In this document: positions 2,604 through 28,866 of the stretch, piece after piece | Layout: every line of letters starts with the position of its first letter | How positions within the stretch are numbered: the stretch's first letter is position 1 | Assembly: GCA_018806915.1 (NCBI GenBank) | Contig: JAGKQI010000043.1 | Location: 372,001-436,000 of the forward strand | DNA: 64,000 bases | Direction: 5' to 3' | Source of the DNA: Phytophthora colocasiae | Lineage: Eukaryota > Oomycota > Peronosporomycetes > Peronosporales > Peronosporaceae | Program-made: the position numbers and the translations under genes | The notes under the pieces: generated by a model | The model's input: the letters and a program-made list of their open reading frames with translations, nothing else | Told to the model about the DNA's origin: nothing | Database searches by the model: none

Positions 2604-2607
2604 TTAA

Positions 2608-2644
2608 CCCACCGGCGACCGTTATCCCAGCAAAGCTGGGATAA
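2608..2644 (+). repeat. Low-coordinate terminal inverted repeat of the giant piggyBac
   Basis: CCCACCGGCGACCG directly abuts TTAA (2604-2607) and is followed by a perfect 10-bp-stem hairpin at 2622-2644 with loop AAA. The same arrangement appears inverted at 23563-23602. Confidence 0.9.
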
Positions 2645-2950
2645 GAAAAACCTCAGAGAAAAACCTTGTTAGAAGCCCTTTCGTCTTTAAAGTGATATTC
2701 ACGTCGTTTTAGCCAATAGGTGTCGTTTGCGGATTTCTCCCCTGGAACGGTGATGAGCATGGCGGGAGGTCTTCCTTGCCGCCATTGGTCGCCAAGCGTT
2801 GATTTACTAGAGCGGAGTGCAACTGGCAGGGCGGCTTGACGACCTTTTATTGCAAGGTAAATTTGTGAAATATGCTTCCGGAAGCGTTTTGCGTGCTGTC
2901 TTAACTAGATAATACAGTTCTCTACTACCAGCTATCAAGGGCAAGAGCAG
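2645..2950. other. Non-coding stretch inside the giant element
   Basis: No reading frame with coding character was seen. It lies between the terminal hairpin and the first cargo gene, and may hold that gene's promoter or 5' exon. Confidence 0.4.
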
Positions 2951-2953
2951 TAA

Positions 2954-3806
2954 GCAGAAGGCATCCGTTGGCTGGCGACTGGCAAGGACACTCCCTCCCT
3001 GGATTTGTATCTGGAAGATGCTGTGATTCCAAGTGATGGAGGCGGGCGAGAAGCTCCGTACACGTTGCTGTGTATGGTTGTAGCGGTGGAGAAGGCTGAC
3101 GAAGTATCAGAGGATGTATGGGAGACATACCAGTACGAACGAGATGTCAGTCCTTTCGAGTGCCTTCTACAAGCGTCAGACGATTTCAGTATGCATACGA
3201 ACTCTACACGGAAGAAGCTCACGCTGAAACGCAGACAGAAAGCGCACGAAGATGGAGAGTTAAAGCTCCAAACGAGTTCAGTTCGTGTCCAGGCAGATCT
3301 ACTGCGGCTTCTATCGTCGACATCAAGCGCTGTCACTAAAAGGAGACTGGAAGACCAGCTTGAAAGCCTCCGAGTCCAGCAAATTATTGAAACTACTGGT
3401 GTTTTCCAGCCTCGACATCTGCAGATCACAGCGCTGGAAGAAGATCCACTGGAATTCCGTCGCGATACTCATGGTATCGCTCAATTATGGGGTACGTCTA
3501 CGTGTGAGTGTACTGTGTGAATTGAATTGATGGTTGATTGTCATGTAGGACGCAACGTACTGGGAGAACACTACGCTCCTAAGAGTGATCTACTGCGCTT
3601 TCTCCATTCCCACTCAGTGCCAGAGATTTTCAAGCGCATGAAGCGGGTAGTGCGTGACGACCTCAGCACTCGTAACAAACGGCGTATTGCAGCACTCAAT
3701 GCCAAGGAGAAGGAACGCAAAAGAGCTTGAGAAGCAGGGTATTCTGTCTCCTGAGCAGCAGCTAGAGGCAAAGTTCGACCGACTCCTCAATCCAAGTGTA
3801 GCGTAG
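2954..3806 (+). pseudogene. Unrecognised two-exon gene, charged coiled-coil-like protein, one frameshift
   Basis: Exon 1 ends at about 3491 (TTATGGG then gtacgt) and exon 2 begins after tcatgtag at about 3549. Splicing keeps the frame (IAQLWG-RNVLGEHY). The protein is rich in Lys, Arg, Glu and Leu, with LTLKRRQKAHEDGELK, LLRLLSSTSSAVTKRRLEDQ and a basic helix near RNKRRIAALNAKEKER. One extra A in an A-run near 3722 shifts the frame. Ignoring it, the reading continues (EKQGILSPEQQLEAKFDRLL) to a stop near 3806. No ATG lies at the 5' edge of the open stretch and a stop precedes it, so an upstream exon is likely. I do not recognise the family; the helical charged content suggests a nuclear or structural protein. 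Confidence 0.5.
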
Positions 3807-3869
3807 AGTGAAGAGCCCCCGGCAAAGGGATCTACAAGCTTTGAAACGACGCAGATACCCAATCTTGCG

Positions 3870-4360
3870 ATGGCATCACGTACAAGACAGCCGTTCTTCG
3901 GCATCTGCAGCCGTCGACGGCAGTTAGACGAACAGAATGACTCGGCTCGTAGTCAATACACTCGGAGGTGGCGTCCAATGGCTCGATATCCCTGGATCTT
4001 TTCGGTTCTGCTGTTTGGAATTATCACTTTCCCGACAATTGCTGTGTCAATTGACTACGGAACGTTTACTTGGAGCTAGTGGAACGAGATGCACACGTCT
4101 ACTTCGGGCTGGACTGCAATCCGAAGGATGTACCGTTCAGGGCCGCGTGTACGAGCCAAGATATTTGTATCGACACCAGTTGCAATGAGCAACCTGCAGA
4201 CAAATGCTGCCTTGTTTTGCCAGCAGATCAAGGATTTTATGGAGGTAGAAACCGTTGATCGAGTACTTCTTGAGTATCTGCAGACGGAAGCCAAATCCGA
4301 GACCCCTGCTGAGCCGCGACACAAAGTCGATAGCTATAAAAGCGGTTTCGTGTAGGAGAA
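3870..4360 (+). pseudogene. Possible relic of a small secreted or Cys-rich protein
   Basis: At 3978 an ATG opens a short frame with a signal-like hydrophobic run (MARYPWIFSVLLFGIITFPT), ending in a stop at 4077. An overlapping frame at 4070-4258 holds a Cys-rich stretch with about seven cysteines in 40 residues, including FGLDCNPKDV and TSCNEQPADKCC. Whether the pieces belong to one gene cannot be told. No family was recognised. Confidence 0.25.
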
Positions 4361-4598
4361 AGTGGGCAACCGGTGGCAGGACTACTGGAGGTCTGGCGTT
4401 AGTCGCCAGCGAGGTTAGTTTCCCTGGCTCAAAGTGACGGATAAACGGCTCAATACATATTGGTTCATCAGTGAGCATACATGTAGAAATGGAATGGGTC
4501 AACTGTGGCGAAACCTTGGCTTAAGTGCCAGTAATGACTACAGATCGTATGGTATACAAATTCTAGTCAAACGGGGCCTTGTGAACTTGTGAAAGAGA

Positions 4599-5384
4599 AT
4601 GGCAGATTTTTCTGATGAAGAAGATCGCCAGCTCGTCCAGCTAGCAGCGACGTACGTGAAATCTGGACGCCGCGTCAAGTGGTCGTTAGTGGCAGAAAAG
4701 ATGAGACCACAGAAATGGAGCCCAGAGAAGCTTCAGCAACGTATCAAGACGCTCAAGCGACGACTAGGAACTGACGTGTTGCAATTTCCGCCGCGATTCT
4801 TTCGGAAGTCACTCCAACAAAATAGCAAGAGCCAACGAGTCCAACAAGCGGATAGTACGCCCGGAATTACAGAGCAATTGATGGTACCGTTGTCTCACGA
4901 AGACACGTACAACGCCACAGAAAGGCTTTTTCGTGTGTTGACTAGGCGCGATGTACGTGCCAATAAGCGTCAGCTAAATGCTGGGGAGATCACGATGGTA
5001 GCAGTATCCAGTTTTATAACTGAAGCAGCCTTTCAAGAGGGCGATGTGTTTCTCGACGCTGGATCTGGTATCGGGAACGTTCTCGTCCAGATTGCGTTAC
5101 AAACTCGGGCGTCTTGCGTGGTGGGCATTGAGATTCAAGACAACTTGGTAGCAAAAGGGATGAAACTAATCGCGTCAGCAGTTGTGGACCTTCCGCATTT
5201 GCAAAAGATCTGTGTTGTCGCCGGAGACATCCGTGGGTTTAAGGAAAGCAACAAAGCTGTTGTGTGCGCTGGAAAAAAATTATCGTCAAGTCGACCTGGC
5301 TCGCTAATCAACTCCGCTACTGTTTTGTACTGTCATGACACCGTGTTTGAAGAAGATGCCGTGTTGGCGGTTATCAACATGTGA
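4599..5384 (+). CDS. DOT1-like histone methyltransferase with N-terminal Myb/SANT-like domain
   Basis: Residues 1-55 (SDEEDRQLVQLAATYVKSGR, then VKWSLVAEKM and a Trp-containing third helix) resemble a Myb/SANT DNA-binding fold. From about residue 110 the protein follows the DOT1 SAM-binding core: a DAGSGIGNVLVQIAL motif I equivalent to DxGxGxG..Q, then CVVGIEIQDN with the acidic residue that binds SAM ribose, then VVAGDIRGF. DOT1 enzymes methylate histone H3 Lys79 without a SET domain. The frame stops at 5384, but similar composition continues in another frame to about 5510 with CPRHRHSCSSPFC, a Cys/His tail that probably belonged to the protein. An intron or frameshift near 5383 (gtgagttg) is likely. 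At 261 aa the catalytic core may be incomplete. It is cargo of the giant element and may be a captured host gene. Confidence 0.65.
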   Translation: MADFSDEEDRQLVQLAATYVKSGRRVKWSLVAEKMRPQKWSPEKLQQRIKTLKRRLGTDVLQFPPRFFRKSLQQNSKSQRVQQADSTPGITEQLMVPLSHEDTYNATERLFRVLTRRDVRANKRQLNAGEITMVAVSSFITEAAFQEGDVFLDAGSGIGNVLVQIALQTRASCVVGIEIQDNLVAKGMKLIASAVVDLPHLQKICVVAGDIRGFKESNKAVVCAGKKLSSSRPGSLINSATVLYCHDTVFEEDAVLAVINM

Positions 5385-5510
5385 GTTGTATTACCTCATC
5401 TTCGCCTGGTGGGATTAACGACGCTGGTATGTCCACGCCATCGACATTCATGCTCTAGCCCTTTTTGTATTCGATGGGAGCTTCTGAAAACACTTCATGT
5501 TCAAATGACA

Positions 5511-5853
5511 TTCGGGAATTCACTCCGAGAGCTACACTTGTACATTAGACGAGCGAGACCAGTCGCAGTCGAAGAAACTTAAAGCCACAAGGACTTCGAG
5601 TGGAATCATGACAAGATGGAGAGGCAACTTCGCGACAATGGCAATGAGGGCTGCATCGTGCTGTCGATAACGGGTCAGTAGGACAAATAGGTGCTGGTGC
5701 AAGAGTGCTTAGAGCGGCTAGCTAGCAAGGACTTAAACTTCCCGAGCTCAATACCAGAACACCCGACACATACCAACATTGCACCACAGTTTACTTCAAC
5801 ACATAATGAAACACGGTTGTTGAAGTCGTTTGACTGTTCGTTATTCTCTTCCT
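5511..5853. other. No supported gene
   Basis: Only short frames without recognisable content are present between the DOT1-like gene and the end of the minus-strand coiled-coil gene. Confidence 0.4.
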
Positions 5854-7340
5854 TTAAATTTCACAAGTTGTTCCCTGCAACTTCTTCGTTCCCCCCTCTT
5901 TAGCATTAATTCTTTTGACTTCACCCATGCTTCCTCTGCCTTTCTTGTCCTTCTTTCTTATCGTACTGCTGACAGATTTCACTTCCTTGCCTTTCGTGTT
6001 GATTTGTTCGTCTTGCTCTTCAATCTTCGCTCTCGCCGCATTCAGTGCTGTCTCCAGATATTTTACTTTCTTCTGGTAGCCGCTTGATATCGCCTTCTCT
6101 CCTGCTAATTCGGCTGTTTTGTTTCTGAGTGCCTCCTCCAATTTTTTCTGCTTACCTTTGTCACCTCGTCGACCAGTGGAAGCCTTGCGCTGAGCCTCTA
6201 GTTCTTCTCGAAGCGTAGTGGAGTTCAACTTCTCCTCATCCAGTTCCCGCACTAGTTCTTGAATTTTTTCCTCAGCTTCCAAGTGTCTCGCCTTGAGATC
6301 CTCCAACTTGGATACGTGGCTTGTCTCCAAGTCCTTCAACTTCCTCTCGGATGCAGCAGACAGCGAGACGGAGATCTTGCGGTAGATCAAATCAAACTCC
6401 GCCCGTAAAGTCTGCTTCTCCTCTTCAGTGTCACACACGAGAGTCGGTAAAGTCGCCGCTACTGCTTGAACTTGGTCTAAACTCGACTCCTTCCCTATCT
6501 TTCCAGTAGCAAGTGGCTTCGCTGCTTGGCTTATCTCTCTTTCCTCCCGAATTGCACGTCTCAGCTCTTTCTTAGTTTCTTCGTGGCCCTCGCTCAAAAG
6601 CTCCTGTATCTTCGTGACAAACGAGGCATTGCTTGACGCCACGAGTTCTCTTAGGCCTGCGCTGGGATCTGCATTAGCCTTGTTTTTCTTATTTTCCAAC
6701 ACCTTGAGATACCCTGCATATACTTCCTTGAGCAGAGACTGGTGGTGCTTCTTGAGCTCTGCTGGTTCGCTCTTGAAGGCCTTGAACTGAATTTTGGTCG
6801 CTAAATCATTGTAATCCACCTTTTCGCATCTATTTCGTGCGGCGAGATACCGTTCTACCCACAAGCGCTTCTGATAGTTTGCCAAAGTGTACGGCTGTGC
6901 TTTCGTGCGCCGCTCGCATTGCCGCTTATCTCCTTGGTACTCCTCGTTGCAAGCTCTCCTCATTTCATCGCAAGCTTCCTTCAGGAATTTGATGGGAACC
7001 TCTTGGCCTTCTGCCTCCTCCGGTTCAGCAGCATCAACATCCTGTACAGAAACTTCAGTATCTTGGCCTGTCGGTTTTGGTCGCTTGCTAGATCCATCCG
7101 AGGACTCAGTAATATTCCCCTTTCGTTTCTTAGATGAAGGCTTGCCCTTGGTTGACGACTTGCTCTGGCCGACTGATTCTCCTGCGTTTTGGCCGGGACG
7201 ACTAACGAATTCGTTTGTGCTGCCACCGACAGTAACTGCCTCGTATGCGCAGTTCTCTCGGTTTGCCCATCCTTCACCCGCGTGTTGCCCTTAAACAGAG
7301 CGACCTTGGTTTTCCTTTTCCCCGCACGCGTCTTCACCAT
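5854..7340 (-). CDS. Coiled-coil protein of unknown function, one probable frame break
   Basis: The main frame (5854 up to about 7289) is open well upstream of the Met at 6963. It contains a Lys/Ser-rich acidic region (SSTKGKPSSKKRKGN, then an acidic Glu/Asp/Val stretch) and then a long helical region rich in Glu, Lys, Leu and Ala (LEDLKARHLEAEEKIQELVR and KYLETALNAARAKIEEQDEQ) typical of a coiled coil. The only good start, MVKTRAGKRKTKVALFKGN, lies in another frame at 7340, so a small intron or indel between about 7190 and 7290 must join them. The C-terminus is very basic (RKKDKKGRGS). The nuclear-localisation-like basic clusters suggest a nuclear or DNA-associated protein. I do not recognise a family. 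Confidence 0.5.
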
Positions 7341-7451
7341 CGTCTTTCAATGGAAATCACACGCAACAAAAAACATACCAAAGAATTTGACATCATTTAC
7401 TCACTAAGTACAAATTATTTATCTCACAACTCAATATTGCGCCACCATTGA

Positions 7452-7829
7452 CTAAACCTCAAGAGCTACGAGACGGGTACGGGCAAAGTCAAGCGGGTAC
7501 ACGAAGAGCGGCGAGCGGGCACCGCCCGAAGCCAGGTTGCCCTTGAAGAAACGCCAGAACTGGTCCTTGGTGACACCGTAATGAAGAGCTTATGAACTTG
7601 TCCTTTAAGGCAAAGTTCAGGGCCTGGGTGCCCTGCTCCTTGGACACACGCACGAAGCAGTCCACGATGCCCTTGTTCGGTTAATCTGCGACGAAGCGCT
7701 GCAGAAGCAGCTTGACACGCTCGATGGAGGCCACGACGGTCTTGGAGATACCGCCGGCAGCCAGGTCCATGAAGAACGAAACGGCGCCGCTCTTCTTCTC
7801 CGAAGTGGCGACTGGTTCAGGGCGCTCAT
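7452..7829 (-). pseudogene. Mitochondrial ADP/ATP translocase pseudogene (SLC25 family), internally deleted
   Basis: After MSALNQSP, a shift of one frame gives a clear adenine-nucleotide-translocator sequence: [65 protein letters not shown] and [13 protein letters not shown]. The second carrier half is missing, and segments between these blocks are deleted: the pyrimidine-transport middle of repeat 1 and the loop after LKDKF. There are frameshifts and a stop after RFVAD. It looks like a broken cargo copy of a normally essential inner-membrane carrier. Whether it came by retrocopy or DNA capture is unclear because the introns of the source gene are unknown. Confidence 0.85.
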
Positions 7830-7926
7830 CTTGAGGAAAGGGGGGAGGCTTTAAGAGTCTTCAGCGAAACGGAGAAAAATCCTAAATGATCGAGGTCGAG
7901 CACGCGGATATTCCATGCAATGGCAA

Positions 7927-10551
7927 CTAGTTGTTTTCACTAGCTAGGTTGTCCATGTTGTCAGCCCCCACGCCTTCTGGAGCTTGCGCCCCATTGTCGT
8001 AAAATTCTTGATCGTAATTGTCAGGACCCCCGTCAGCTCCTTCTGGGGCATCGTGACTCCTACCAACCAGGCCGTCCCTATCGGCTCCGAGCTGATCATC
8101 GTGACTTGATGAAACTTGAATTTGCTGTGCCTCTGTACTTTGAAAATGGGCTGGACTTCCAACAACTGGAGTCTCACCCAAGAGAAGCTCCTGAAAGCTC
8201 AAATTCCTCCGTCGCGAGCTTACCTCGGGTGGCTCAACCGTGGCAGCAATTGAATCGTTTGGTAACTCCTCTGTCGAACGGCGAATTCGAATACTCCCTC
8301 TCTTCTCCAGTTGCGGAATATTCCTTCCATTCTTCCAGTTCGAATGCAAAATATTAAAGCAAGACACCGAATTTCCATCAGTCACATGCCGTGCTTTTGA
8401 ACATAAAAACAGTCTCCCGCGATCGGAGGAACACTACTGACAGTAATGGCGCGTTGTTCCTGCCAATCGACGCCTTCCATCTGAAGTTGTACGGCACATG
8501 ATGGAACAAACTTTGCAGACGCGAAACTTGAATTTCCCACCCGCAGTTTTATCTGTTGACACCAACACTCGATGACTCGAGCTAGCAATAGCGTAGGCAG
8601 TAGCAATCGAAGCCGACCGGTCCCTTGAGTCATCCACTGCAACAACTTCTTCAGTAATGTGTTCAGTTTCCAAGAAATCTTGGTCTTGGAGACCTAGGAG
8701 CTCCTCGTGGAGTTGGATCAGGAAGTTCGAGTGTGAAAGCGGTTTCTCTTCGATGGACTTTGCGTATAGACGGTGTACAATGAATGCGTTGATGATCGCA
8801 ATGTCAAGAAGCCGTAAAAAAGATTCTTGTAGTACTTTTTGGCGCGCATGACCATTTGAACAGAGTAACTAAACCAACCACATACAGTACCTCATGTCAG
8901 TAAAAATGAAATAAGCACTGCTCTACATTAAACTCACCGTTGCAGGCGTAATTGGTCGTGATTATCAACGCCACCCATGTACTTGTTGTAATTCACAACA
9001 AACTCCGGACACGGAATAGTAGCGTACGTACCGTCCCTTTGCTTTCGTTGTACAGACGACCTTTTCGCCGAGACTCCAGTGGCCAGAAAATAACAAATTT
9101 TTGAGTCTACCCACCTTGATGCGTACAATACTCCGTTCGTGGTGTTTCTTGCAAGCTTGTAGGACCCTCGAGGCATATTGCGTGATTGGCTCTTTTTTTT
9201 GTCTTGAAATTCTCCACAAAACCAAGCCGACTCGTGGACACTGTTCCGATATTGTAATACCCCATGTCCATCAGGCGAAAACTAAGCGATACTGATGAGT
9301 ATTCTCGGTCCGTAACAACGATTCTTTTCTTCGAGCGATCTACTCGACGCTGTTCCCACAGGGCCTTCAAGTTACGGACGACAGCCATTGGCCCACTTCT
9401 CGTGTCAACAAATTGACTATCTTGCTTCTTGCCACAATAGACTTCGAATCTGTGATAAAGACGCACAAAAGATCTAAGTAAATGACATCTGCTTGACATA
9501 CACCTAAACAGTATCATTCTGTACCTGGAGCAGTAGTGGGTTTCGCCACACCAAACTGCGAACAGCTTTGTCCCGTACTTGTGCGGCTTATTCTTCAGAA
9601 AAACACGAATTGTATTCCGCGAACTCCTTGACGGGATAACCATTTCATCGAACGCAACCCAACGCCCTAGCTCCATCGCACCCTTAAACGTATCTTGGAG
9701 AGTATCAATTACACTTCTAATTTTCCATGCCCGATCGGATTTTGCTCGTGGGTCCTCGTTGTCTGTGAAGTGGATGAACCTACCAACACGTCTCTATTAG
9801 TACAGTACCAGGTAAAATGTCAACGTTGTCTCATCATTTATACCGGCAATTCATAATCCAGTTCTGAGCGCACGTTCGTACCTGTTAATCTCCTTAAAAC
9901 GCAGTCGAGGCATGAATGGTGACCATGTCCCGGCGGGAATTGCCCCACGCGCCTGGGTTTTCCAATGATCTTCCATACGGGCTTTAATAGGGCAAACAGC
10001 TCTCTAAATGATCAACGCCAAGAAATGCGTTATTTCCGCTGCGGAAATCTCCTTGAACGAATCCAGGGCTCGTTCTTTCTCTCGGTACAACTTGCTTCGC
10101 AAAGCTTGATCATTCGTCTTGGCATTTATGACCAGCGACGCGGCTTGTAACCGTTGAGCGCGTGCTTGGCGCTCGTACAAATTGGTTTCATGTGCGATAT
10201 CTCTCCAGAGGCGTTTCGGCATAAAATAAAAAAATAAATCCGTTGGCTTCATCGTTCGAGCTGCATCAATTGCTGATTGTTGTAAATGGGGAGGATCGTT
10301 CATAACATCACACATGCCATCCGTATTGGTATCGTCCACACCATCGCCGACATTCAGCTCCTCCCAACCGTTTATAGACATAGACCGCAGCATTTCATCT
10401 GTTATATAATCTTGAGGTCCTGCGACAGCACGAATCTCCTCAGCAGTCTCAACAGAAAATTCATCTTCGTCATCTTCCTCGTTGACGATGATATTTTCTG
10501 TGGTTTCTTCGTCAGAACCGTCATCACTCTCACTAGCGCAATAATCAGACG
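7927..10551 (-). pseudogene. PiggyBac-type DDD transposase of the giant element, decayed
   Basis: Minus-strand exons can be followed from an acidic N-terminal region (10551-10400) to the C-terminus. Introns with GT..AG ends are at 9881-9780, 9524-9450 and 8937-8869. The 9524 intron sits at the same codon as the intron in the transposase at 43.7 kb. Catalytic blocks are present: WVAFDEMVIPSRSSRN (first Asp), RIVVTDREYSSVSL (second Asp) and YMGGVDNHDQLRLQ (third Asp). A C-terminal cysteine-rich domain follows (FRVCKVCSIMC, TRHYC, FLCSKARH). Lesions are a frameshift in a T-run near 9188, a one-base loss near 8815, a stop near 10007 and an in-frame TAG near 8432. The protein therefore looks inactive, though most motifs persist. 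It is the best candidate for the enzyme that once moved the 21-kb unit. Confidence 0.85.
8869..8937 (-). other. Spliceosomal intron in the piggyBac transposase gene
   Basis: Exon end CTGCAACG, then gtgagttt, ending ggtttag. Removal joins LRLQR to YSVQMVMRAKKYYK, the usual piggyBac sequence after the third catalytic Asp. Confidence 0.75.
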
Positions 10552-11620
10552 CTAAAACTCATGATCGTCGTCAAGGCCTTCATTTGCTACATCGATACGA
10601 AATGGACGGGTCCGTGGCGCCTTCAACAGCGATTTCGGCCTACTGTGGCTGACCGTTGGTCTTTTCTTCCGAAAAAGGTTGCTCGAATTAGTTTCACTCC
10701 TCGCTTCTTCGTCTACCTTGGTCTCCTCGTCGTTGGTGTTTTCCTCCCGATAATCAGGAAAATCAAATTCATAATTGGGGTTCGAGTTTTCTTGAACTCC
10801 CCGTAATTCGTCTGCATTGCTGACAATCCGTTGAGATCTGTCGATTCTGTTTGGAGAGGGATCTAATGTCCGTGCGTCTTGGTTTATATCAGTTGGGGTG
10901 GCCACCGGGACAGTTGTAGAATTGGTTGTACTGTGGTTTTCTGTGACATTGGCAACAGAAACCTGTATACTTGCCGCTGGATGAGCTTTCTGTTGACGAC
11001 GTCGAAATACCGCCAGGACTTCGGGACAGTTCATGTTTGATCCAGCGATCCAACTGCACTCCGTATACCCTTTCCATTTGACTAGGTAATGAGGTAATCC
11101 AAAACGAAATCTCTCTCGAAGGATTGCTTCCACTTCGTACTCTTTCTCCTGAGAAGTACCTGTACAGTATCACCGGTGACCAACAGTTCAGTCAGAGAAT
11201 AATGCACTCGAAGACAATATCATTAGCTACCTTTTGACGCTTTCCGTTTCACGGAGCTCTCGGAGCTTGCTGTCGCTTTCGGGCTCGCAGCTCTCTTCTT
11301 GGAAGCACGGGCACGTTTTAGCTGCTCTTCGTTAAATTGTTGCAGAAGCCTGGGGCACGTAAGATTGGATTCCGGCTCCAATGTAGTGTCATTGTAACCC
11401 TTCCATTTTACATGATACTTTGGCTTTCCCGACACGATTTTCATATCGATAATACGTTCCACTTCGTACTCTTCATCTACGAACAAGCATTCGATTAGAA
11501 CTGCCAACGACGCAAGAGTTGTGTCTGCGTACCAGATATTTCATCGGGCCGAGTAGCTCTCCGCCGGCTCGTGCGAGACGACTGGGGATCTCTTTCTCTC
11601 TCCTTGCGCTTGCGCGGCAT
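10552..11620 (-). CDS. Tandem-chromodomain protein, three exons, intact frame
   Basis: Exons 11620-11533, 11476-11231 and 11159-10552 join across GT..AG introns of 56 and 71 bp to give 942 bases, exactly 313 codons plus stop. The start [11 protein letters not shown] is basic. The first chromodomain follows ([34 protein letters not shown]), then a Lys/Ser-rich linker, then the second chromodomain ([33 protein letters not shown]). An Asn/Thr/Asp-rich tail with a basic patch ends the protein. Chromodomains bind methylated histone tails; aromatic-cage positions Tyr, Trp and Tyr/Trp are present. The stop at 10552 directly abuts the acidic start of the transposase. One lost T in the GAGTTTTAG run would explain a broken fusion (see findings). 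It could also be a separate gene that targets integration. Confidence 0.85.
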
Positions 11621-11754
11621 GACCACCTTAGAATCCTGAATTGAATGCAAGTGGTATCCGGACAGTTTTTTTGCACTTACACTTACAATCACGTAATGAG
11701 ATCCAAAATATCCGGATACGGCGTAACTATACTGGTATACCAGTAATCGACGTC

Positions 11755-11872
11755 AGCATTAGAGGCAAATATACTAGTTTCACTAAAGAAAACAATCCAA
11801 TAGTGAAACTAGTATATTTACCTCTATCGACGTGGACTCTTTGAGAGAGGTGAATATACTAGTTTCACTATA
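11755..11872. repeat. MITE-like inverted repeat with three copies of one end
   Basis: aaatatactagtttcacta at about 11767 and its reverse complement at about 11799 form a hairpin, and a third copy (gaatatactagtttcact) follows at about 11853. The surrounding gaggcaaat and acctct also pair. This looks like a short miniature element with a neighbouring duplicated end. No coding capacity. Confidence 0.6.
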
Positions 11873-11984
11873 GGTCGTGGCCGTCCATAAATGTAAAAGT
11901 TTATATGTCGGCTACAATCTGCAACAATAAAACTACTACGTAGCTGCAATCCATGTGCGATACGATTCAAGCGACGAGCTGTAA

Positions 11985-13299: not shown

Positions 13300-14767
13300 G
13301 TCGCTGACAAGGAAAAGTTACCACTGCTAACGTCGAGCAGCATAGCAGGTAATATCAGCGTTGTGACCAGTAGGGCTCAAGCGGCGTAACGGGTAGCGTA
13401 GCAGATCGTCGACCAGCGTACCAGGTAGAACATCCTAGTAGGTAGGGCAGCGTAGCAGGTTATAGCAGCATTGCGACCAGGTTCGAGTAGCGTAGCAGGT
13501 TATAGCAGCATTGTGACCAGTAGGGCTCCAGCAAGGGTAGCGTAGCAGATCGTCGCAGCGTACCAGGTAGAACAGCCTAGTAGGTAGGGCAGCGTAGCAG
13601 GTTATAGCAGCATTGTGACCAGTAGGGCTCCAGCAACGTAACGGGTAGCGTAGCAGATCGTCGACCAGCGTACCAGGTAGAACATCCTAGTAGGTAGGGC
13701 AGCGTAGCAGGTTATAGCAGCATTGCGACCAGGTTCGAGTAGCGTAGCAGGTTATAGCAGCATTGTGACCAGTAGGGCTCCAGCAACGTAACGGGTAGCG
13801 TAGCAGATCGTCGACCAGCGTACCAGGTAGAACAGCCTAGTAGGTAGGGCAGCGTAGCAGGTTATAGCAGCATTGCGACCAGGTTCGAGTAGCGTAGCAG
13901 GTTATAGCAGCATTGTGACCAGTAGGGCTCAAGCAGCGTAACGGGTAGCGTAGCAGCCAGTAGAACGTCGAGTAGCGTAGCAGCCAGCAAAGGTCGAGCA
14001 GCGTAGTCAGCAATTTCGTGTAGTGCACGTCGAGCAGGGCGTCAGGACATTGGGTAATGGGGGACTTGAGGGGGGCTTGGTGAAATTGAAAATGAGGCTC
14101 CGCTTTGCGATTCTTACCGCGAGGATCGCGCACATGAGGTTGGCTAGAGCTTCAACTTGCTGGCCAATTAGCACTCGTCATTTTTACGCTAGCGCCTCTT
14201 ATTGGCGGAATCGTCAGAGCGAACCCGCCGGGGAAAAGTTTGGCTTGGAAAAGCGCGCGGAAACACGTATAGTGGGCCTTGCGACCGCGTAGGAATCATG
14301 TTGGCTTCAAGTTTAACCTCAACATATGATTACTATAATACTCACACTATACTATTGATATTACTATACGTGGCGAAGAGTGCGTTTGTACTTGCGATAG
14401 TATGAACTCCTGACAATAAATGTCAACTGCGAAGAAACGTCGACTTGAGATTTCAATTATCAGCGATGGTCTGCATTTCACTCACTTTCTGTAGTCCGCC
14501 ATGGGGACGATGATTAAACGCAGTTGCAGTAGTTAGTGGTAGTTCACGGGTGGCACGACCGTGCAGAAGCCGCCCGGAAAAATTGACCGTTTTGAAGTTG
14601 TTGCTAGAACTTCACAGCCGGCTACGAAAGCGCATTCAGGGACGTGGACACCCACGTTGAAGCTCCCAGTCCGGCTCGGCGTGGCTTTAGTGTCATAGAC
14701 CTCTATCGATGATACCGCAGCCAAGACTGCTGCCTCATGTTGTGAGGATGTTTAACTTTATCGATGT
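13300..14767 (+). repeat. Left arm of the fold-back element
   Basis: Tandem subrepeats to about 14010 (recurring phrases such as gtgaccagtagggctc and accaggtagaacagcctag), then a unique 750-bp inner segment. The inner boundary is at gtttaactttatcgatg near 14767, matched inverted near 16550. Confidence 0.8.
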
Positions 14768-16548: not shown

Positions 16549-18440
16549 CATCGATAAAGTTAAACATCCTCACAACATGAGGCAGCAGTCTTGGCTGCGG
16601 TATCATCGATAGAGGTCTATGACACGAAAGCCACGCCGAGCCGGACTGGGAGCTTCAACGTGGGTGTCCACGTCCCTGAATGCGCTTTCGTAGCCGGCTG
16701 TGAAGTTCTAGCAACAACTTCAAAACGGTCAATTTTTCCGGGCGGCTTCTGCACGGTCGTGCCACCCGTGAACTACCACTAACTACTGCAACTGCGTTTA
16801 ATCATCGTCCCCATGGCGGACTACAGAAAGTGAGTGAAATGCAGACCATCGCTGATAATTGAAATCTCAAGTCGACGTTTCTTCGCAGTTGACATTTTAT
16901 TGTCAGGGTTCATACTATCGCAAGTACAAACGCACTCTTCGCCACGTATAGTAATATCAATAGTATAGTGTGAGTATTATAGTAATCATATGTTGAGGTT
17001 GAACTTGAAGCCAACATGATTCCTACGCGGTCGCAAGGCCCACTATACGTGTTTCCGCGCGCTTTTCCAAGCCAAACTTTTCCCCGGCGGGTTCGCTCTG
17101 ACGATTCCGCCAATAAGAGGCGCTAGCGTAAAAATGACGAGTGCTAATTGGCCAGCAAGTTGAAGCTCTAGCCAACCTCATGTGCGCGATCCTCGCGGTA
17201 AGAATCGCAAAGCGGAGCCTCATTTTCAATTTCACCAAGCCCCCCTCAAGTCCCCCATTACCCAATGTCCTGACGCCCTGCTCGACGTGCACTACACGAA
17301 ATTGCTGACTACGCTGCTCGACCTTTGCTGGCTGCTACGCTACTCGACGTTCTACTGGCTGCTACGCTACCCGTTACGCTGCTTGAGCCCTACTGGTCAC
17401 AATGCTGCTATAACCTGCTACGCTACTCGAACCTGGTCGCAATGCTGCTATAACCTGCTACGCTGCCCTACCTACTAGGCTGTTCTACCTGGTACGCTGG
17501 TCGACGATCTGCTACGCTACCCGTTACGTTGCTGGAGCCCTACTGGTCACAATGCTGCTATAACCTGCTACGCTACTCGAACCTGGTCGCAATGCTGCTA
17601 TAACCTGCTACGCTGCCCTACCTACTAGGATGTTCTACCTGGTACGCTGGTCGACGATCTGCTACGCTACCCGTTACGTTGCTGGAGCCCTACTGGTCAC
17701 AATGCTGCTATAACCTGCTACGCTGCCCTACCTACTAGGCTGTTCTACCTGGTACGCTGCGACGATCTGCTACGCTACCCTTGCTGGAGCCCTACTGGTC
17801 ACAATGCTGCTATAACCTGCTACGCTACTCGAACCTGGTCGCAATGCTGCTATAACCTGCTACGCTGCCCTACCTACTAGGCTGTTCTACCTGGTACGCT
17901 GGTCGACGATCTGCTACGCTACCCGTTACGCTGCTTGAGCCCTACTGGTCACAATGCTGCTATAACCTGCTACGCTACTCGAACCTGGTCGCAATGCTGC
18001 TATAACCTGCTACGCTGCCCTACCTACTAGGCTGTTCTACCTGGTACGCTGGTCGACGATCTGCTACGCTACCCGTTACGTTGCTGGAGCCCTACTGGTC
18101 ACAATGCTGCTATAACCTGCTACGCTACTCGAACCTGGTCGCAATGCTGCTATAACCTGCTACGCTGCCCTACCTACTAGGCTGTTCTACCTGGTACGCT
18201 GGTCGACGATCTGCTACGCTACCCGTTACGTTGCTGGAGCCCTACTGGTCACAATGCTGCTATAACCTGCTACGCTGCCCTACCTACTAGGCTGTTCTAC
18301 CTGGTACGCTGCTCGACGTTCTGCTACGCAACCCTTACGCTACACCATCACAATGCTGCTTTAACCTGCTACGCTGCCCGGCGTTCTGCTGTGTAGTTGC
18401 GCTAGGGAAAGTTTTTGTGGCTGCTGACGGCTTCGATTCC
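16549..18440 (-). repeat. Right arm of the fold-back element
   Basis: Inverted copy of 13300-14767 with more tandem subrepeat units (about 17300-18390). Subrepeat phrases such as cacaatgctgctataacctg recur more than ten times. Confidence 0.8.
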
Positions 18441-18522
18441 CTGTCAGCTGATCAGCTCGAGGTGTAGTGCTTACCTTGAGTTTAGTACTACAGTAGTAGT
18501 ATTTGAGAGGTCAATGATAAGT

Positions 18523-19113
18523 TGTTCCCGAGCACAAAGAAGACGAAGCTGCGGCTGAAGATGTCGGAGATCGCGAGAATTCTCGACCAAGCGAGAACAT
18601 TCCCGCCCAGAAGCCTGTTACTCCTCGAAAGAGTGCCAACCACCAGGAGGCTGAAGAAGACAATGAATTGACACCCAGTAAAAAAGAAGGTTGCACGAGA
18701 GGATCCTCACGCTCCTGGAGCGAGCGTCCTTTTCTCGTACCACCCGACGTGATACATCCAAGTCTCTCTATCCTCTACTTCCCAAAACGAGGCAGCACGA
18801 GGCAACATCGAAGGCTCAAGCTCAGTATCTCCGGTATAAACTCACTGAAGAATCACTTACTGAACTACGCCAGCGAGAGACCTCTCAGCGACAGCACTTG
18901 AAACGTGCGTACAAGTCTGGGGAGCATGTGGCAAACGTCGACAAGATTCGGTTTTGTCGGTTCGAGCAAGATGTGCGTTTGCACCGCATTGCTATTGGGC
19001 TGGAGGCCAAGAACGAAGAAGAGAAGCAGCTACGACAAGCCATGAGCCACCTGCTCGATCTGGAGAAGGAGAAGCTCAGGGAAGAACACCGCGTGACGGC
19101 GTCAGTGCTTATC
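18523..19113 (+). pseudogene. Gene fragment framed by two direct copies of a fold-back end
   Basis: Charged helical coding-like sequence reads VVPEHKEDEAAAEDVGDREN and KPVTPRKSANHQEAEEDNEL, then, in a second frame from 18691, LRYKLTEESLTELRQRETSQ, VDKIRFCRFEQDVRLHRIAI and MSHLLDLEKEKLREEHR. It sits precisely between two direct repeats at 18476-18522 and 19118-19165. It looks like a captured exon rather than a complete gene. Function unknown; a coiled coil is likely. Confidence 0.45.
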
Positions 19114-19117
19114 ATAT

Positions 19118-19165
19118 ATCTCGAGTTTAGTACTACTGTAGTATTGGATAGGTCAATGGTAAAAC
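19118..19165 (+). repeat. Second copy of the fold-back end motif
   Basis: tcgagtttagtactactgta then ggataggtcaatggtaaaac, closely matching 18476-18522 in direct orientation and 13180-13285 inverted. Confidence 0.6.
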
Positions 19166-19206
19166 ATCATCGACATGGTGTTGGAAGGTCCAAAGATAAA
19201 TCCTAG

Positions 19207-19857
19207 ATGTACAGGCAAAACATTTAGATCGGGCAGTCATTCAATGGCGAGCGTTGAAAGGATCTACTTTCTTTCGGCACGACAACAAAAATATTTGAAT
19301 CGATGGCGGATCAACATCGTCACTAAACGCGTCCTTTTAAGCAGATTTTATGCTGTGTTTACTTTCGCAAGGTAGGTTTTAGAATTTTATGCTACTTTTT
19401 GTGCTTCAAACTGTCAACAGCAAGACAACGGTGTCATTCGAGATGGCGACGATACCTGCAGGGCCGAAGGCGCATCGTCCAACGGCACAACATAGTGGCG
19501 TCCACGACGGCTGGTCAGACCAAGGTTGAGGCATGCGAAGAAGTCGTCCAAGCACAAGTCGTCATGCACTAAATCTGGCATATAGACGTACCAAGTTGAC
19601 GTGGTGTGCTCACGCCTATATCTCTACGCGTTAGAGGGAGCATGAATATAAAGTCTTGTATGCAAATACGCTATGTGAAGAGTTGACATCGTCATTACTA
19701 AACTCAATATAAATACGTCTTTTAATGTCAATGTTGTTCTGCCATCGATGTAAATTAATGTTGTCAACTGTATTGCTAACAATAAAACGTAAAAAAAACC
19801 TTGATAGCCAGTACATTGCCGTACTTCCGGAGATTGTTGCACTGCGTGTCTCCAACG
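19207..19857. other. No supported gene; weak internal repeats
   Basis: Two loosely similar segments (about 19310-19345 and 19685-19730, sharing acatcgtca, actaaac and cgtcctttta/cgtcttttaa) suggest decayed miniature elements. No coding sequence was recognised. Confidence 0.3.
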
Positions 19858-20493
19858 CTATTGAGGAACAACAGTGTAGAAATGTGCTACTTCAGCCACC
19901 TCAGGTTCCGCCGCTTGAAAATCACGGTAAAGGTTGCACAACAACTCATCTGGTAGCGGGTCATCCGCGCGTTGATTTAATTTTTTCGCGTGCTCGAAAT
20001 CATCGCAAAGAAAACTCACCACGTAAGTCTTCCCTTCAAGTCCACAATCGCTCCAACACGAATTTTCTATTCTCTCCACGAACTCCCATTCCACTTGAGA
20101 AATGTGCGAACTGTCAACGATCACCACTTCGGCGCTTTGAAGCTCAGCTCTAAACACGCCGTGCATGTTCCTATCACACCACCATGCACCCCATTCATCT
20201 TGCTGAGGGGTGAATATACGCACGATCCGTGCATTGCTCACGGTGTCCTCTGCGAATGCATTTACAAACGCACGTCGAAGCATCTCGGCGAACTTTGTCT
20301 TCCCGCTTCCAGGCAACCCATCGTAGCACGACAACACACGACCCATAGGACCATGTTTTGTTGTCAATAAAGTCGTGAACGATGGACAATGCCACGTCCT
20401 CCACGCGCCAGCTCCAATCCATACCTCGGTTGTAGTTGGACCAATGCAGGAAAAAATGAAAGTGGCATCCCCAATTCTTTCAGACGTAGTCAT
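19858..20493 (-). CDS. P-loop kinase-like ATPase (AAA_33 / polynucleotide-kinase type)
   Basis: An intact 211-aa frame. A Walker A motif is clear in CYDGLPGSGKTKFAEML (about residues 56-72). A Walker B-like VVIVDSSHISQVEWEFVERI (about 122-141) resembles the VIVDNTN..W segment of NEDD4-binding-protein-2-like and related small P-loop kinases, which phosphorylate nucleic acids or small molecules. The C-terminal third (KTYVVSFLCDDFEHAKKLNQ and the Arg-containing stretch after it) is compatible with the lid and Arg region. Substrate cannot be told. The frame has no lesions and stands alone on the minus strand, with a short promoter region before the divergent gene at 20663. Its role in the giant element is unknown. 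Confidence 0.6.
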   Translation of the reverse strand: MTTSERIGDATFIFSCIGPTTTEVWIGAGAWRTWHCPSFTTLLTTKHGPMGRVLSCYDGLPGSGKTKFAEMLRRAFVNAFAEDTVSNARIVRIFTPQQDEWGAWWCDRNMHGVFRAELQSAEVVIVDSSHISQVEWEFVERIENSCWSDCGLEGKTYVVSFLCDDFEHAKKLNQRADDPLPDELLCNLYRDFQAAEPEVAEVAHFYTVVPQ

Positions 20494-20662
20494 GTTCTTT
20501 CCTTATAGATAATTCTCGGAGGTCTCTCAAAGTCTCTCAAACGTCTCGGCCAATTCTCAGAAATACCGTTTATCCTTCTGTACTAGTTTTGAAGTCAAGT
20601 TGTCTTTTATCATTTAAAATTATACTTATACAGATTTTTGTCACTAGATCGCAGTGGAGTCC

Positions 20663-21065
20663 AATGGCTTGGATGATTCTACGTCTGTAAGCTCTTCTGT
20701 GGCTTCCAATTCTAGTCTGGAAGACTAAAGATGTGGTGAACAACTTCAACGCTGCTATGAATCGTCATAAGCGCTACGTTGAGCAATTGACGTTGCCTAC
20801 ACTTCACTATTCACTCTGGAATTATAAAGACGGATATTTCTTCGGGCCGATGCAGTTTGTGGCTGGATTATTGGCTGGAGTTGTGGTAGGCGTTGCTGTC
20901 ACTCAGCAAGGGCAATTTCACAAGTGGAGCCTCCATCGCTTTTCGGTAAATTGGCAAACTGGTGCAGTCGACGAGCACCTGCGGCGGGTACGCCTTGGCA
21001 TCCCATTCCGTTGCCGATGGACGAGTACAGCTACCTGATGCACCCTGCGACAGTTGAGGTCATGT
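20663..21065 (+). pseudogene. Small membrane protein with one in-frame stop
   Basis: From the ATG at 20663 the frame reads MAWMILRL, then TAA, then ALLWLPILVWKTKDVV and continues in frame. A soluble helix MNRHKRYVEQLTLPTLHYSL follows, then a glycine-rich hydrophobic segment MQFVAGLLAGVVVGVAVTQQ. The TAA in an otherwise continuous frame indicates a recent nonsense change or a stop-skipping intron. Beyond about 20950 the ending is ambiguous; another frame gives a short tail ending near 21065. Divergent from the P-loop gene. Family not recognised. Confidence 0.45.
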
Positions 21066-21379
21066 GAGATTTAAGACAATAGGTCACGGAAGAATATGTG
21101 GAGGCGTACGATGTACTACGCACGTGTTATGGTTGGCGTTTACCGACTCGAGTATAGTGAACTGATCTCGTGCAATATACTTACCTAGGATAGTAGAAAT
21201 ACATGTAGATTAATGCTCAACGTTCGTGTCATCTCAAAGTTAAAGGATAAATAAGCAGGTCGTTGTGTTTCGCTTTTTTATATGTTTTTCTCTGCTACTC
21301 CGTCGCTATAGGTCTATCTCCGACTGCGCTCTACATTCCTCTACGATCTCCAACTCGAGCAAGTACGACCTCGACTCAA

Positions 21380-21700
21380 AAGCTTAAATTGTGAAGAGAG
21401 ACGCGCTCGCATGCAAGAACCTCGCTGTCAGGTTGCGTTGCTGCTTGAGATCCAGCAACAGAGGTAGCTCTGATGAGCATCTATCTGACTCTTTCCTTGA
21501 GAAACTCCAGCCAGATATCCAACATTAGGGCTTTCAATCGTGCCTTCGATAAAGCCTCCTTATCCGGGTCTTCTCTCAATGAAAGAGCGCTGTGTGCTTT
21601 AAGATAGATCTGCCATATTCTCCACCCCTTGACAGCAAAATTTTCTCGTTACTACTGCACTCCCCACAGGAAACCGGTGCAGCATTAGTTTCTCCACTCC
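21380..21700 (-). pseudogene. Possible coding relic, minus strand
   Basis: A helical stretch SLREDPDKEALSKARLKALM followed by a Leu-rich helix ends in a stop near 21493, and a second in-frame piece follows to about 21380. It may be the tail of a gene whose start is lost. Weak evidence only. Confidence 0.25.
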
Positions 21701-21749
21701 GAGCCAACGTTTCCTTGTCAACGTTGATGTAGTGGCTTTTTTCGCTCGA

Positions 21750-23185
21750 GCAGGACGTAAAAGCGTTCGTCCTCTCTTATATTCTTTGTCTGTTCGCTCT
21801 TGGGCAGAGACTACTGTAGAGATGTTCGCTCCAGCTTGACACGACAAATAGCGTCGAGGATTGTACCCGACGCTCACTTTCTTGCGCAGACTCAAGTGCT
21901 CGTGCACCATCATCTCCAGTAGTGTCACCACTAGGTACCGAAACCCGCACTTTTCCGCCGCCAGCAGAACCTACGAAGACTGTGCTAGAATCCAGGTAAA
22001 GGTCCTGGGAAGAAGACAAACTCGTTGCGTTACCGTCGTTCTTTAGTGTCATTCCATCTCCAATGCTGATAAGTCCGCGCGTGCCGTCAAGCGTAATGCC
22101 GGCCGCTGTAGGATCGTCCGCGATGGTGTTGGCCACTGTCACCGTTCCAGCAGGATCGACGAAAAGCAGGGAGTTTCCACCAGCGCTCGTGATGACAGTT
22201 CCTGCTTTTGATACGAGATTCAGGTCGCCCTGCTCCTTCACACCGCCCGAACTGTTCGCAGCTGTGGTCATCATCGTGCCATCATCGAAAACAACCCCCT
22301 TTCTGGCACTCAAATAATCCGCCTCAATCATGGGAGCTGATGTAACACCAAACTGTTAGCAAAGCAATACGCACACAAGAAAATGTCATGTGCACTTACA
22401 ATCCACCCTGTTTGTGAACGTCACAGTGCCATTGGAGAAGAAAGTCACCCCATAAAATGTCTGCTGGTCTCCGGAATCCAATGCACGTCGTCCGATTTTC
22501 AACTCTCCATCATCAAATGCGATCATTCCCTCCGAGTAGGCGGTATTAGAGTATCCTGGGCGTCACAACACACAACATTAATTGATGCCGCAAAACAACT
22601 CTCCACTACGTCCGTCTTACCACTCTTCAAGAAGATCTGTGCGTCATCCTCCGCCACAACTGTAAATCTATTATCCACCGTCGTTCCAAAGAGATCGTTC
22701 TGATGCGACTCGAAGAAATCCGTCTGCGTCAAGTAGATCGTAATGCTGCTCATGAGTAAGAAGCTCAGCAGCGTCAATACTCCAATCGCCGTCCAGAACA
22801 CATCATGGTCCTCTCTTTTGCGTCTTCTCCAGTGTAATTATCTGCAGAATCCCCCACTAGATCTGTATCGGAAGATGCGAGTATCTGCATCTGAATGGAA
22901 GAAGCCTCTTCTCCCTCTTAAACGTCGCAATCTCTGCACACCAATTCCAGCCATGCGTCTGGCCAAATCTCCGTCCTCCTCCCCGTCCAGCATCAAATGG
23001 TCTCCACGTAGATCATCACCTGGTGAATCCATAGGAATAGCTTGTCGTCAACGTCGGTACGAGTTTTCTTCTAACTCCGTTGACTGCACATCATTTTCCT
23101 CGTCTTCTTCTTCGCTCCGTGACGTCTCAAGTTTCTTCATTGCCGTCGTCATAGCGACCTTAAACGTCTGTTCCATCCAGCGTCA
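21750..23185 (-). CDS. Type II membrane protein with beta-rich extracellular domain, multi-exon
   Basis: An acidic cytoplasmic part (MEQTFKVAMTTAMKKLETSR, then DSPGDDLRGDHLMLDGEEDG in the same frame after one TGA near 23047) leads, after a frame change near 22860-22900, to WRRRKREDHDV. A transmembrane helix VFWTAIGVLTLLSFLLMSSI follows. The exterior reads FFESHQNDLFGTTVDNRFTV, then after an intron (about 22622-22557, gtaagac to gcccag) GYSNTAYSEGMIAFDDGELK, then after a second intron (about 22400-22336, gtaagtgc to acatcag) SPMIEADYLSARKGVVFDDG. It continues as Gly/Thr/Val-rich repeats like those of tail-fibre or beta-helical surface proteins. Coding character fades after about 21900. One stop and a frame change make it a probable pseudogene or an incompletely understood gene. 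Family not identified. Confidence 0.5.
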
Positions 23186-23562
23186 GTGAACGTCGTCCAC
23201 GGCCTTCAAACAGCGCAGGGGCTCAGCCGTATTTTCTTGCGCTTTTCCAGCGAGAAGATGTTCCTCAGCGTGCTCATACTGGGCGCCGCCCAGTGGGCGG
23301 GGATAGATGCCGAGGATAAATTTTTGTAATAGATAGTCTAAAAGTAGAGATTATTTTCGTGATTTTGGGCGGCTACTCCGAATTACGACAAGGTTTTTTC
23401 GCCAAGTCCATTGACAGACCTCACTATTAGAAGCTTATCTCAACTCTGATTGGATACTACTGACCAATAAGCAAAAAGTAAGCGAAAGCAGGTGGTGACA
23501 CTCCAGACCGATGGGAACATTGATTTCCCTACCCCCATAGCATACAAATTTCTATATAAAAC
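23186..23562. other. Non-coding end region of the giant element
   Basis: AT-richer sequence with no recognised gene between the membrane-protein gene and the terminal hairpin. It contains a short GC-rich palindrome near 23280 (gggcgccgcccagtgggcgggg). Confidence 0.4.
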
Positions 23563-23602
23563 TTATCCCAGCAAAGCTGGGATAACAGCGGTCGCCGGTG
23601 GG
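23563..23602 (-). repeat. High-coordinate terminal inverted repeat of the giant piggyBac
   Basis: Read on the minus strand from the TTAA at 23603-23606: CCCACCGGCGACCGCTG, then the hairpin TTATCCCAGC-TTT-GCTGGGATAA. It matches 2608-2644 except for CTG and the loop. Confidence 0.9.
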
Positions 23603-23606
23603 TTAA

Positions 23607-26590: not shown

Positions 26591-26591
26591 C

Positions 26592-28862: not shown

Positions 28863-28866
28863 TTGA
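28833..28866 (+). other. Conserved 3' flank of Fanzor, candidate guide-RNA end
   Basis: ttttgttaggatttctgtaacggaacaa follows the stop and recurs, inverted, at 1925-1952, with a partial copy at 1066-1090. Ends ttgtt and aacaa can pair. In TnpB and Fanzor systems the guide RNA overlaps the gene's 3' end and stops at the element's right end, so this is the place to look for it. The function is inference. The kinase start codon lies only a few bases downstream. Confidence 0.35.

What the first reader, a model, noticed from the sequence alone, without database searches (positions are those of the whole stretch)
2604..23606. A 21-kb piggyBac-type transposon carrying many genes, inserted inside a Fanzor gene
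Both ends have the same inverted sequence (14 bp plus a hairpin) and flanking TTAA, and the outer flanks are two halves of one gene. Joining the halves at one TTAA gives exactly the uninterrupted sequence of the related copy near 28170, an internal empty-site control. A piggyBac transposase lies inside. Usual piggyBacs are a few kb; a unit seven times larger with histone-modifying, kinase-like and membrane-protein genes would be a cargo-carrying giant DNA transposon, comparable in logic (not in enzyme) to fungal Starships.
Basis: partly seen in the sequence, partly recalled or inferred. Interest (0 to 1): 0.96.

Follow-up and report, generated by a model that had tools for sequence, protein, structure and literature searches.

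The report
Giant piggyBac transposon carrying DOT1 methyltransferase
A 21-kb jumping element of the piggyBac kind, with 23 end-paired copies in this (likely Phytophthora) genome, carries near its transposase gene a DOT1-type histone-methyltransferase-like gene that is predicted to shape the chromatin around the element, and 17 of the 23 copies also carry a copied piece of a likely host gene.

Summary
Window 2604-23606 is one piggyBac-superfamily element: 20,995 bp between TTAA sites, 14-bp terminal repeats, an inner palindrome at each end, and two Fanzor-like paralogues as empty-site controls. It is not a one-off: the genome holds 55 exact ends; 22 convergent pairs (23 allowing one mismatch) are always one left plus one right end, 18 of 23 are 19-21 kb, and the ten copies read in full are collinear. 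The whole unit moves.

The interpretation changes. The histone-modifying gene is not casual cargo: it matches in 23 of 23 copies; a compact 5.5-kb family (Myb-DOT1 plus transposase) is bounded by TTAA; and 83 of 105 DOT1 loci outside the 20-kb family lie within 6 kb of a piggyBac locus (2.4 expected). DOT1 looks like a core partner of these piggyBacs. The transposase has an HP1-like chromodomain front end. True cargo is shown once: 17 of 23 copies carry a 1.35-kb genomic fragment of a likely host membrane-protein gene. The 'kinase-like' gene is a weak P-loop match. No purifying selection is detectable among copies. Methyltransferase activity, chromatin effect and present mobility are untested; every transposase frame read is interrupted at an A run.

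The parts
2604..2607 (.). left TTAA target site
2608..2621 (+). left 14-bp terminal inverted repeat
   Evidence: 55 exact genome copies with TTAA
2622..2644 (.). left inner palindrome, loop AAA in this copy
2954..3520 (+). ORF of 188 codons, no Pfam match above cut-off, coding not shown
4599..5384 (+). Myb-DOT1 methyltransferase-like gene (first Met to the stop in this copy; longer open in other copies)
5854..7346 (-). coiled-coil-like gene of unknown function, matches in 23 of 23 copies
7927..11620 (-). piggyBac transposase gene with predicted introns and HP1-like front end; frame interrupted at an A run
13333..14766 (+). internal inverted repeat, arm 1, with tandem arrays
16549..17982 (-). 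internal inverted repeat, arm 2, 99.2% identical to arm 1
18682..19206 (+). ORF of 174 codons, no Pfam match, coding not shown
19858..20502 (-). P-loop protein gene (weak AAA_33/KTI12-like match below cut-off), function unknown
21870..23220 (-). captured fragment of a likely host membrane-protein gene (contig C95)
23563..23585 (.). right inner palindrome
23589..23602 (-). right 14-bp terminal inverted repeat
23603..23606 (.). right TTAA target site
2090..2572 (-). one half of the interrupted Fanzor-like gene
23640..24128 (-). other half of the interrupted Fanzor-like gene
27697..28874 (+). uninterrupted paralogue used as empty-site control

Best explanation
The stretch is a 21-kb piggyBac-superfamily DNA transposon with 23 end-paired copies at TTAA sites of this genome, and its core is a transposase gene together with a DOT1-type methyltransferase gene that likely conditions the chromatin of the element for it. 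Shown here: ends, TTAA target sites, whole-unit copies in both orientations (ten read in full), empty-site paralogues, DOT1 matches in 23 of 23 copies, the same gene pair in a compact 5.5-kb TTAA-bounded family and beside 83 of 105 DOT1 loci outside the 20-kb family, and a captured host-like fragment in 17 of 23 copies. Inferred: the transposase cuts and pastes the unit through the 14-bp repeats, with the inner palindromes as likely binding sites of its cysteine-rich tail; its HP1-like front end reads methylated histone H3 and steers it to such chromatin; the Myb-DOT1 protein binds element DNA and methylates H3K79 there, most likely as a counter-silencing device that keeps the element expressed and accessible (the opposite, self-restraint, is not excluded). 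The other genes are likely passengers gained by an enlarging two-gene core.
Against: No expression, excision or transposition data. In all 10 copies read, the transposase frame is interrupted at an A run of 7, 8 or 10 bases: assembly homopolymer error, slippage or real decay cannot be told apart, so none of these copies is shown to be autonomous. The ratio of nonsynonymous to synonymous variation among seven copies is near or above 1 for DOT1 (1.38), coiled-coil (0.95) and most transposase pieces (0.61-1.61), each on few sites: no selection seen after insertion; the two compact copies give 0.74 and 0.57, not significant. The element's DOT1 has CHD where the compact relative has WNN (alignment), so activity of this version is doubtful. 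The direction of the chromatin effect is unknown; in the brown alga Ectocarpus H3K79me2 goes with intact, weakly expressed transposons (PMC12477816, passages). 18 of 105 DOT1 loci have no listed piggyBac within 12 kb; one right/right pair of the compact end type (C93, 5.8 kb) has a piggyBac but no listed DOT1; one fetched DOT1-piggyBac relative (L039) shows no terminal repeats at TTAA.
Confidence: 0.82

Rival explanations
1. DOT1 and the other genes are casual cargo: host genes picked up once by this family and spread with it, with no part in its movement.
For: One extra segment is clearly captured host-like sequence; no selection on any gene among copies; the extra coiled-coil and P-loop genes have few relatives outside the family.
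Against: DOT1 is the neighbour of piggyBac loci of many diverged families, in two main arrangements, and a compact TTAA-bounded family consists of the pair. The reading stays good for the membrane-protein fragment and possible for the coiled-coil and P-loop genes.
Confidence: 0.1
2. DOT1 loci and piggyBac loci are close only because both lie in the same repeat-rich regions, or because piggyBac elements insert near DOT1 genes.
For: Both are high-copy; haplotype and segmental duplicates were not removed from the counts; L039 has a pair without detectable ends.
Against: Fixed gaps within families (about 0.82, 0.86, 1.1, 2.4, 3.1 and 3.9 kb), preferred tail-to-tail order (50 of 83), DOT1 inside the ends in 23 of 23 large and 8 of 8 tested compact left/right pairs.
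Confidence: 0.04
3. The unit began as a composite: two short piggyBac elements whose outer ends moved the DNA between them.
For: Two palindromic ends, a long internal inverted repeat, and a terminal stretch of C36b that is more diverged (92.6%) than the adjoining part (98.4%), as if ends had been exchanged.
Against: Left and right ends differ and never pair with themselves in 22 of 22 pairs; the transposase lies at the same inner place in the collinear copies; no short element with these ends was found. This concerns origin only, not present behaviour.
Confidence: 0.1
4. A virus-derived element like Teratorn, in which piggyBac moves a viral genome.
For: Size, inverted repeats and copy number are alike (PMC5601938 and PMC6431247, passages).
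Against: No viral family among the Pfam matches of the 19 element ORF pieces scanned, none of 8 pieces in PHROGs, which covers viruses of bacteria and archaea only, and no DOT1 relative confirmed in viral contigs. Not every ORF was scanned.
Confidence: 0.02
5. Assembly artefact or segmental duplication.
For: A draft assembly with frame-breaking homopolymers; C105 shows a local duplication.
Against: Ten copies read have different flanks, both orientations and TTAA on both sides; junctions match an empty paralogue.
Confidence: 0.02

Closest known systems
piggyBac superfamily DNA transposons
   Same: TTAA target, terminal inverted repeats beginning CCC, DDE_Tnp_1_7 transposase, inner repeat next to each end (last two features of the type recalled)
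   Different: about 20 kb instead of a few kb, extra genes in every copy, Myb-DOT1 partner, HP1-like chromodomain front end on the transposase, palindromic inner repeat whose loop is AAA in some copies and TTT in others
Teratorn (medaka piggyBac-herpesvirus, about 180 kb; PMC5601938 and PMC6431247, passages)
   Same: giant piggyBac that moves as a unit, long inverted repeats inside, tens of copies
   Different: no herpesvirus gene among the ORF pieces scanned; the extra genes are chromatin-type and captured cellular sequence
Duplicated inverted gene blocks with PiggyBac-like elements in Phytophthora megakarya (PMC7341134, section 28 read)
   Same: expanded families of mostly hypothetical proteins in blocks with inverted repeats at the block ends and repeats in between, linked to PiggyBac
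   Different: that section gives no element boundaries, target sites of the blocks or DOT1, and reads them as a gene duplication pattern; possibly the same kind of element, not tested
Phytophthora Helentrons with a SET domain (PMC4067079, passages)
   Same: a Phytophthora transposon carrying a histone-methyltransferase-type gene
   Different: rolling-circle element and SET enzyme instead of cut-and-paste element and DOT1
Fungal Starships (recalled; named in the listing)
   Same: large, gene-carrying DNA element
   Different: no tyrosine-recombinase captain seen; DDE transposase, TTAA target; horizontal transfer not tested
Chromodomain Gypsy retrotransposons (chromoviruses, oomycete Chronos; PMC12477816, passages)
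   Same: chromodomain joined to the integrating enzyme
   Different: here the enzyme is a piggyBac transposase and the domain is at its front

Membership tests
piggyBac superfamily | TTAA target-site copies on both sides | tested here: met
   10 of 10 copies read in full; empty-site paralogue with one TTAA
piggyBac superfamily | terminal inverted repeats | tested here: met
   14 of 14 bases identical; 55 exact ends in the genome, control 0
piggyBac superfamily | DDE_Tnp_1_7 (PF13843) transposase | tested here: met
   116.7 bits against cut-off 22.4 for the predicted spliced front 705 residues; match to solved piggyBat, E 4.5e-13
piggyBac superfamily | three catalytic aspartates and C-terminal cysteine-rich domain | tested here: inconclusive
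   FDEM, TDRE, GGVDNHDQ and a Cys cluster are visible in the translations; roles recalled, not aligned for this copy; frame interrupted by an A run
piggyBac superfamily | precise excision and transposition | not testable with these tools
   needs bench or population data
DOT1 methyltransferase family | PF08123 above cut-off and DOT1 fold | tested here: met
DOT1 methyltransferase family | H3K79 methylation activity | not testable with these tools
   needs an enzyme assay
HP1-like protein (front end of the transposase) | chromodomain | tested here: met
   PF00385 in two stretches, 81.9 bits, cut-off 25.1
HP1-like protein (front end of the transposase) | chromoshadow domain | tested here: inconclusive
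   Pfam gives none, yet CBX5 aligns over residues 11-166
Teratorn-like element | herpesvirus genes | tested here: not met
   none among Pfam matches of the 19 element ORF pieces scanned, E up to 0.1; not every ORF was scanned
Starship | tyrosine-recombinase captain | tested here: not met
   no such match among the same 19 pieces; the only integrase-type match is the DDE transposase
Fanzor/TnpB (the interrupted gene) | TnpB-type core and zinc-binding end | tested here: met
   in the uninterrupted paralogue, in two frames: HTH_OrfB 39.8 bits, cut-off 21; TNB domain 48 bits, cut-off 26.3; guided_TnpB E 7.2e-25 but 88.1 bits, under its cut-off of 100

The most novel reading that the evidence does not exclude
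Phytophthora piggyBacs are a distinct class of chromatin-programming transposons: a transposase and its own DOT1 histone methyltransferase travel as an obligate pair, most DOT1 genes of the genome are transposon genes rather than host genes, and some lineages have fused an HP1-like histone reader to the transposase and grown into 20-27 kb carriers that copy host genes.
Probability: 0.6. Interest if true: 0.9.

Novelty: new variant of a known kind. Interest (0 to 1): 0.8.

Why it matters
Selfish DNA and chromatin silencing are usually described as opponents in which the host owns the histone enzymes. Here a widespread class of DNA transposons appears to bring its own DOT1-type enzyme, and in one lineage a histone reader too. 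If confirmed, it makes directly testable whether a transposon can write the chromatin state that it needs, would explain why Phytophthora protein sets hold many 'histone-lysine N-methyltransferase' entries of DOT1 type (they would be transposon genes in host annotation), offers a reading of the PiggyBac-linked gene blocks of P. megakarya, and shows a natural piggyBac unit of 20 kb spreading, host-like sequence included.

Tried and rejected
Casual-cargo reading of DOT1: given up after the genome-wide neighbour count and the compact family. Virus origin: no support. Composite of two short elements: no short pair for this end type; kept as a rival for the origin. Purifying selection on the extra genes: not found among seven copies; the lowest ratios (ORF of 178 codons 0.23, p 0.057; captured fragment 0.46 and 0.47, p 0.06 and 0.16) are not significant, and shifted-frame controls span 0.46-2.14. 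One DOT1-piggyBac relative (L039) gave no terminal repeat next to TTAA within 7.5 kb, so it is not evidence for a bounded element. The P-loop model from one sequence was useless (mean pLDDT 36) and was not searched. Rfam at gathering scores: no match in the window. The longer copies C92, C48 and C22b contain nested retrotransposons (reverse-transcriptase matches), which accounts for extra length rather than more cargo. C22b differs by about 5% in the left-half comparison, probably because of such an insert in the part cut out; it is not used for identity statements.

Counting choices: the 29 merged DOT1 loci of the 20-kb family were removed before the count of 105. The piggyBac list joins (5 rows only); and 32 listings were cut by the tool, and one search used a transposase of a DOT1-bearing family as query, so the share of piggyBacs with a DOT1 (83 of 163) is biased and not used as evidence. 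With alone the count was 51 of 105 (1.8 expected). Copies of one family are counted singly, so the 83 are not 83 independent events; duplicates were not removed. For the compact ends, one search tested eight left/right pairs and eight right/right pairs; a ninth left/right pair (C9:1187524-1219523, 32 kb) was left out of that script and compared by hand afterwards; its DOT1 counts among the 18 without a near piggyBac. Thirteen further ends... eleven after that pair, are unpaired.

Prior-art searches: (listings seen); none listed a paper whose title or abstract start describes piggyBac elements that carry DOT1. Most subscription papers are outside that library.


Full report
OBSERVATION. The stretch 2604-23606 begins and ends with TTAA. 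Inside each TTAA lies the same 14-bp sequence in inverted orientation, followed directly (left) or after CTG (right) by a 23-bp palindrome with a 3-base loop. Between the TTAA sites lie 20,995 bp. The flanks, joined at one TTAA, align through the junction with two related sequences elsewhere in the window, at 93.2% and 91.1%; the junction in the copy near 28170 has one TTAA and is identical for the bases next to it. The wording 'exactly' is too strong further out (an 8-bp gap and scattered differences). The interrupted sequence is a Fanzor/TnpB-like gene copy: the uninterrupted paralogue matches the TnpB core (E 7.2e-25, under that model's cut-off), HTH_OrfB and the TNB zinc domain.

A FAMILY OF WHOLE UNITS. 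The genome that holds the window (92.5 Mb, 105 contigs) has 55 exact copies of TTAA plus the 14-bp repeat; the reversed control pattern has none. Reading on into the palindrome separates left-type from right-type ends (54 ends). All 22 convergent pairs closer than 40 kb consist of one left and one right end, 10 in one orientation and 12 in the other; 17 of 22 are 19.2-21.0 kb apart, the others 23.3, 25.0, 28.5, 32.0 and 36.7 kb. With up to 2 mismatches six more ends appear, and one completes a 23rd pair of 20.3 kb. Ten of the 55 exact ends stay unpaired. No convergent pair shorter than 19 kb was found for this end type. Ten of the 23 were read in full (window copy plus nine): 10 of 10 have TTAA on both sides, sit in different flanking DNA and are collinear with the window copy, the long blocks being 95-99% identical. 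Seven compact ones are 98.7-99.65% alike in a multiple alignment, gaps ignored, the window copy being the most different. Three longer ones contain nested retrotransposons. The 20-kb unit has therefore multiplied as a unit.

GENES. DOT1-like, piggyBac, coiled-coil and P-loop matches fall inside 23 of 23 pairs; several are pieces broken by stops or frame shifts. The transposase gene reads right to left with short predicted introns. Its front matches HP1-type proteins (CBX5, E 1.8e-17, residues 11-166) and its middle the solved piggyBat transposase; Pfam gives PF00385 in two stretches and PF13843. The same pair of Pfam domains occurs in 3 of the 120 relatives listed for the front end (P0063, P0070, P0088), so the fusion is not unique to this genome. 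In the ten copies read, the frame is interrupted at an A run of 7, 8 or 10 bases; I cannot say whether this is an assembly error.

CAPTURED HOST SEQUENCE. The 'membrane-protein gene' at the right end matches, at 95.7-96.1% in the three copies compared, 1,354 bp including an intron-like gap of a locus on contig C95 that lies in no element pair and has long open frames. The copied piece starts behind the predicted start codon and ends inside the gene. Matches of 100 residues or more at 90% or more are present in 17 of 23 elements and absent in 6; in one of the six (C36b) the same place holds about 576 bp of other DNA. This reads as gene-fragment capture followed by spread; loss in the six is less likely but not excluded.

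SELECTION. Among seven copies nonsynonymous and synonymous variants occur at similar rates per site in most genes, with stops and frame shifts, and shifted frames look much the same; the two compact copies give 0.74 and 0.57, not significant. After insertion, copies appear to drift. The extra genes are not shown to benefit host or element.

MECHANISM. Shown: whole-unit copies, ends, targets, gene content. From knowledge of piggyBac (recalled): cut-and-paste at TTAA by a DDE enzyme with precise repair. Inferred: binding of the palindromes by the cysteine-rich tail, histone reading by the front end, H3K79 methylation by Myb-DOT1 near the element, counter-silencing as its purpose. In yeast and animals DOT1 is the H3K79 enzyme (PMC13076208, passages). 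In Ectocarpus, a brown alga and so a distant relative (recalled), H3K79me2 goes with intact transposons and with lower expression of transposon genes (PMC12477816, passages), so the sign of the effect is open. The element's own DOT1 has CHD where the compact relative has WNN (alignment; a role of the Asn pair in DOT1 enzymes is recalled), so the large family's enzyme may be altered or inactive.

WHAT IS KNOWN. Giant piggyBacs exist as Teratorn (PMC5601938, PMC6431247, passages). A Phytophthora transposon with a histone-methyltransferase domain exists as a SET-bearing Helentron (PMC4067079, passages). PiggyBac-linked inverted gene blocks were noted in P. megakarya (PMC7341134, section 28 read), without element anatomy in that section. 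Brown algae have an expanded DOT1 set described as an adaptation of that group (PMC13076208, passages). None of ten literature searches (listed under Tried and rejected) listed a description of DOT1-carrying piggyBacs. I therefore call it a new variant of a known kind.

Noticed in passing
54 ends listed; window 2622-2644 and 23563-23585: The 3-base loop of the inner palindrome is AAA in some copies and TTT in others, with otherwise identical ends (left ends 15 TTT: 12 AAA, right ends 24: 3). This looks like repeated inversion of the palindrome, as by hairpin or cruciform processing.
   Followed up: partly
window 13333-14766 and 16549-17982: A 1.43-kb inverted repeat, 99.2% identical between arms, with 110-150 bp tandem arrays of varying copy number, sits in the middle of the element; inverted matches to it occur in the nine other copies read. 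Role unknown.
   Followed up: partly
G000:C82:231927-250931 and C11:356035-383009: Two further large stretches (19.0 and 27.0 kb) bounded by TTAACCCTTTCGCGAACA ends with DOT1 and piggyBac matches inside: perhaps a second giant lineage.
   Followed up: partly
G000: C36:993045, C50:846455, C58:1448628, C82:82469, C94:525457: Five stretches of 349-352 bp between right-type ends of the compact family, probably short non-autonomous elements.
   Followed up: no
window 26588-28846 and 32073-34313: Two Fanzor-like gene copies, 93% alike over 2.27 kb, lie a few kb apart beside the interrupted one.
   Followed up: partly
window 29840-31828: Protein kinase gene with a likely membrane-spanning stretch (PF00069 168 bits); diverged similar DNA lies at about 35-41 kb.
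   Followed up: no
L039:713-1583 (-), G000:C57: A second, diverged Myb-type and DOT1-type stretch lies next to another DOT1-piggyBac pair, suggesting nested or tandem elements.
   Followed up: no
L043:right end, G000:C36b: The terminal 0.4 kb of C36b is only 92.6% like the other copies while the part before the captured fragment is 98.4% alike: the right ends may have been exchanged between subfamilies.
   Followed up: no
G000:C105:1053176 and 1108388: Two left-type ends 55 kb apart on one strand with matching DOT1, coiled-coil and P-loop hits point to a local duplication of an element with its surroundings.
   Followed up: no
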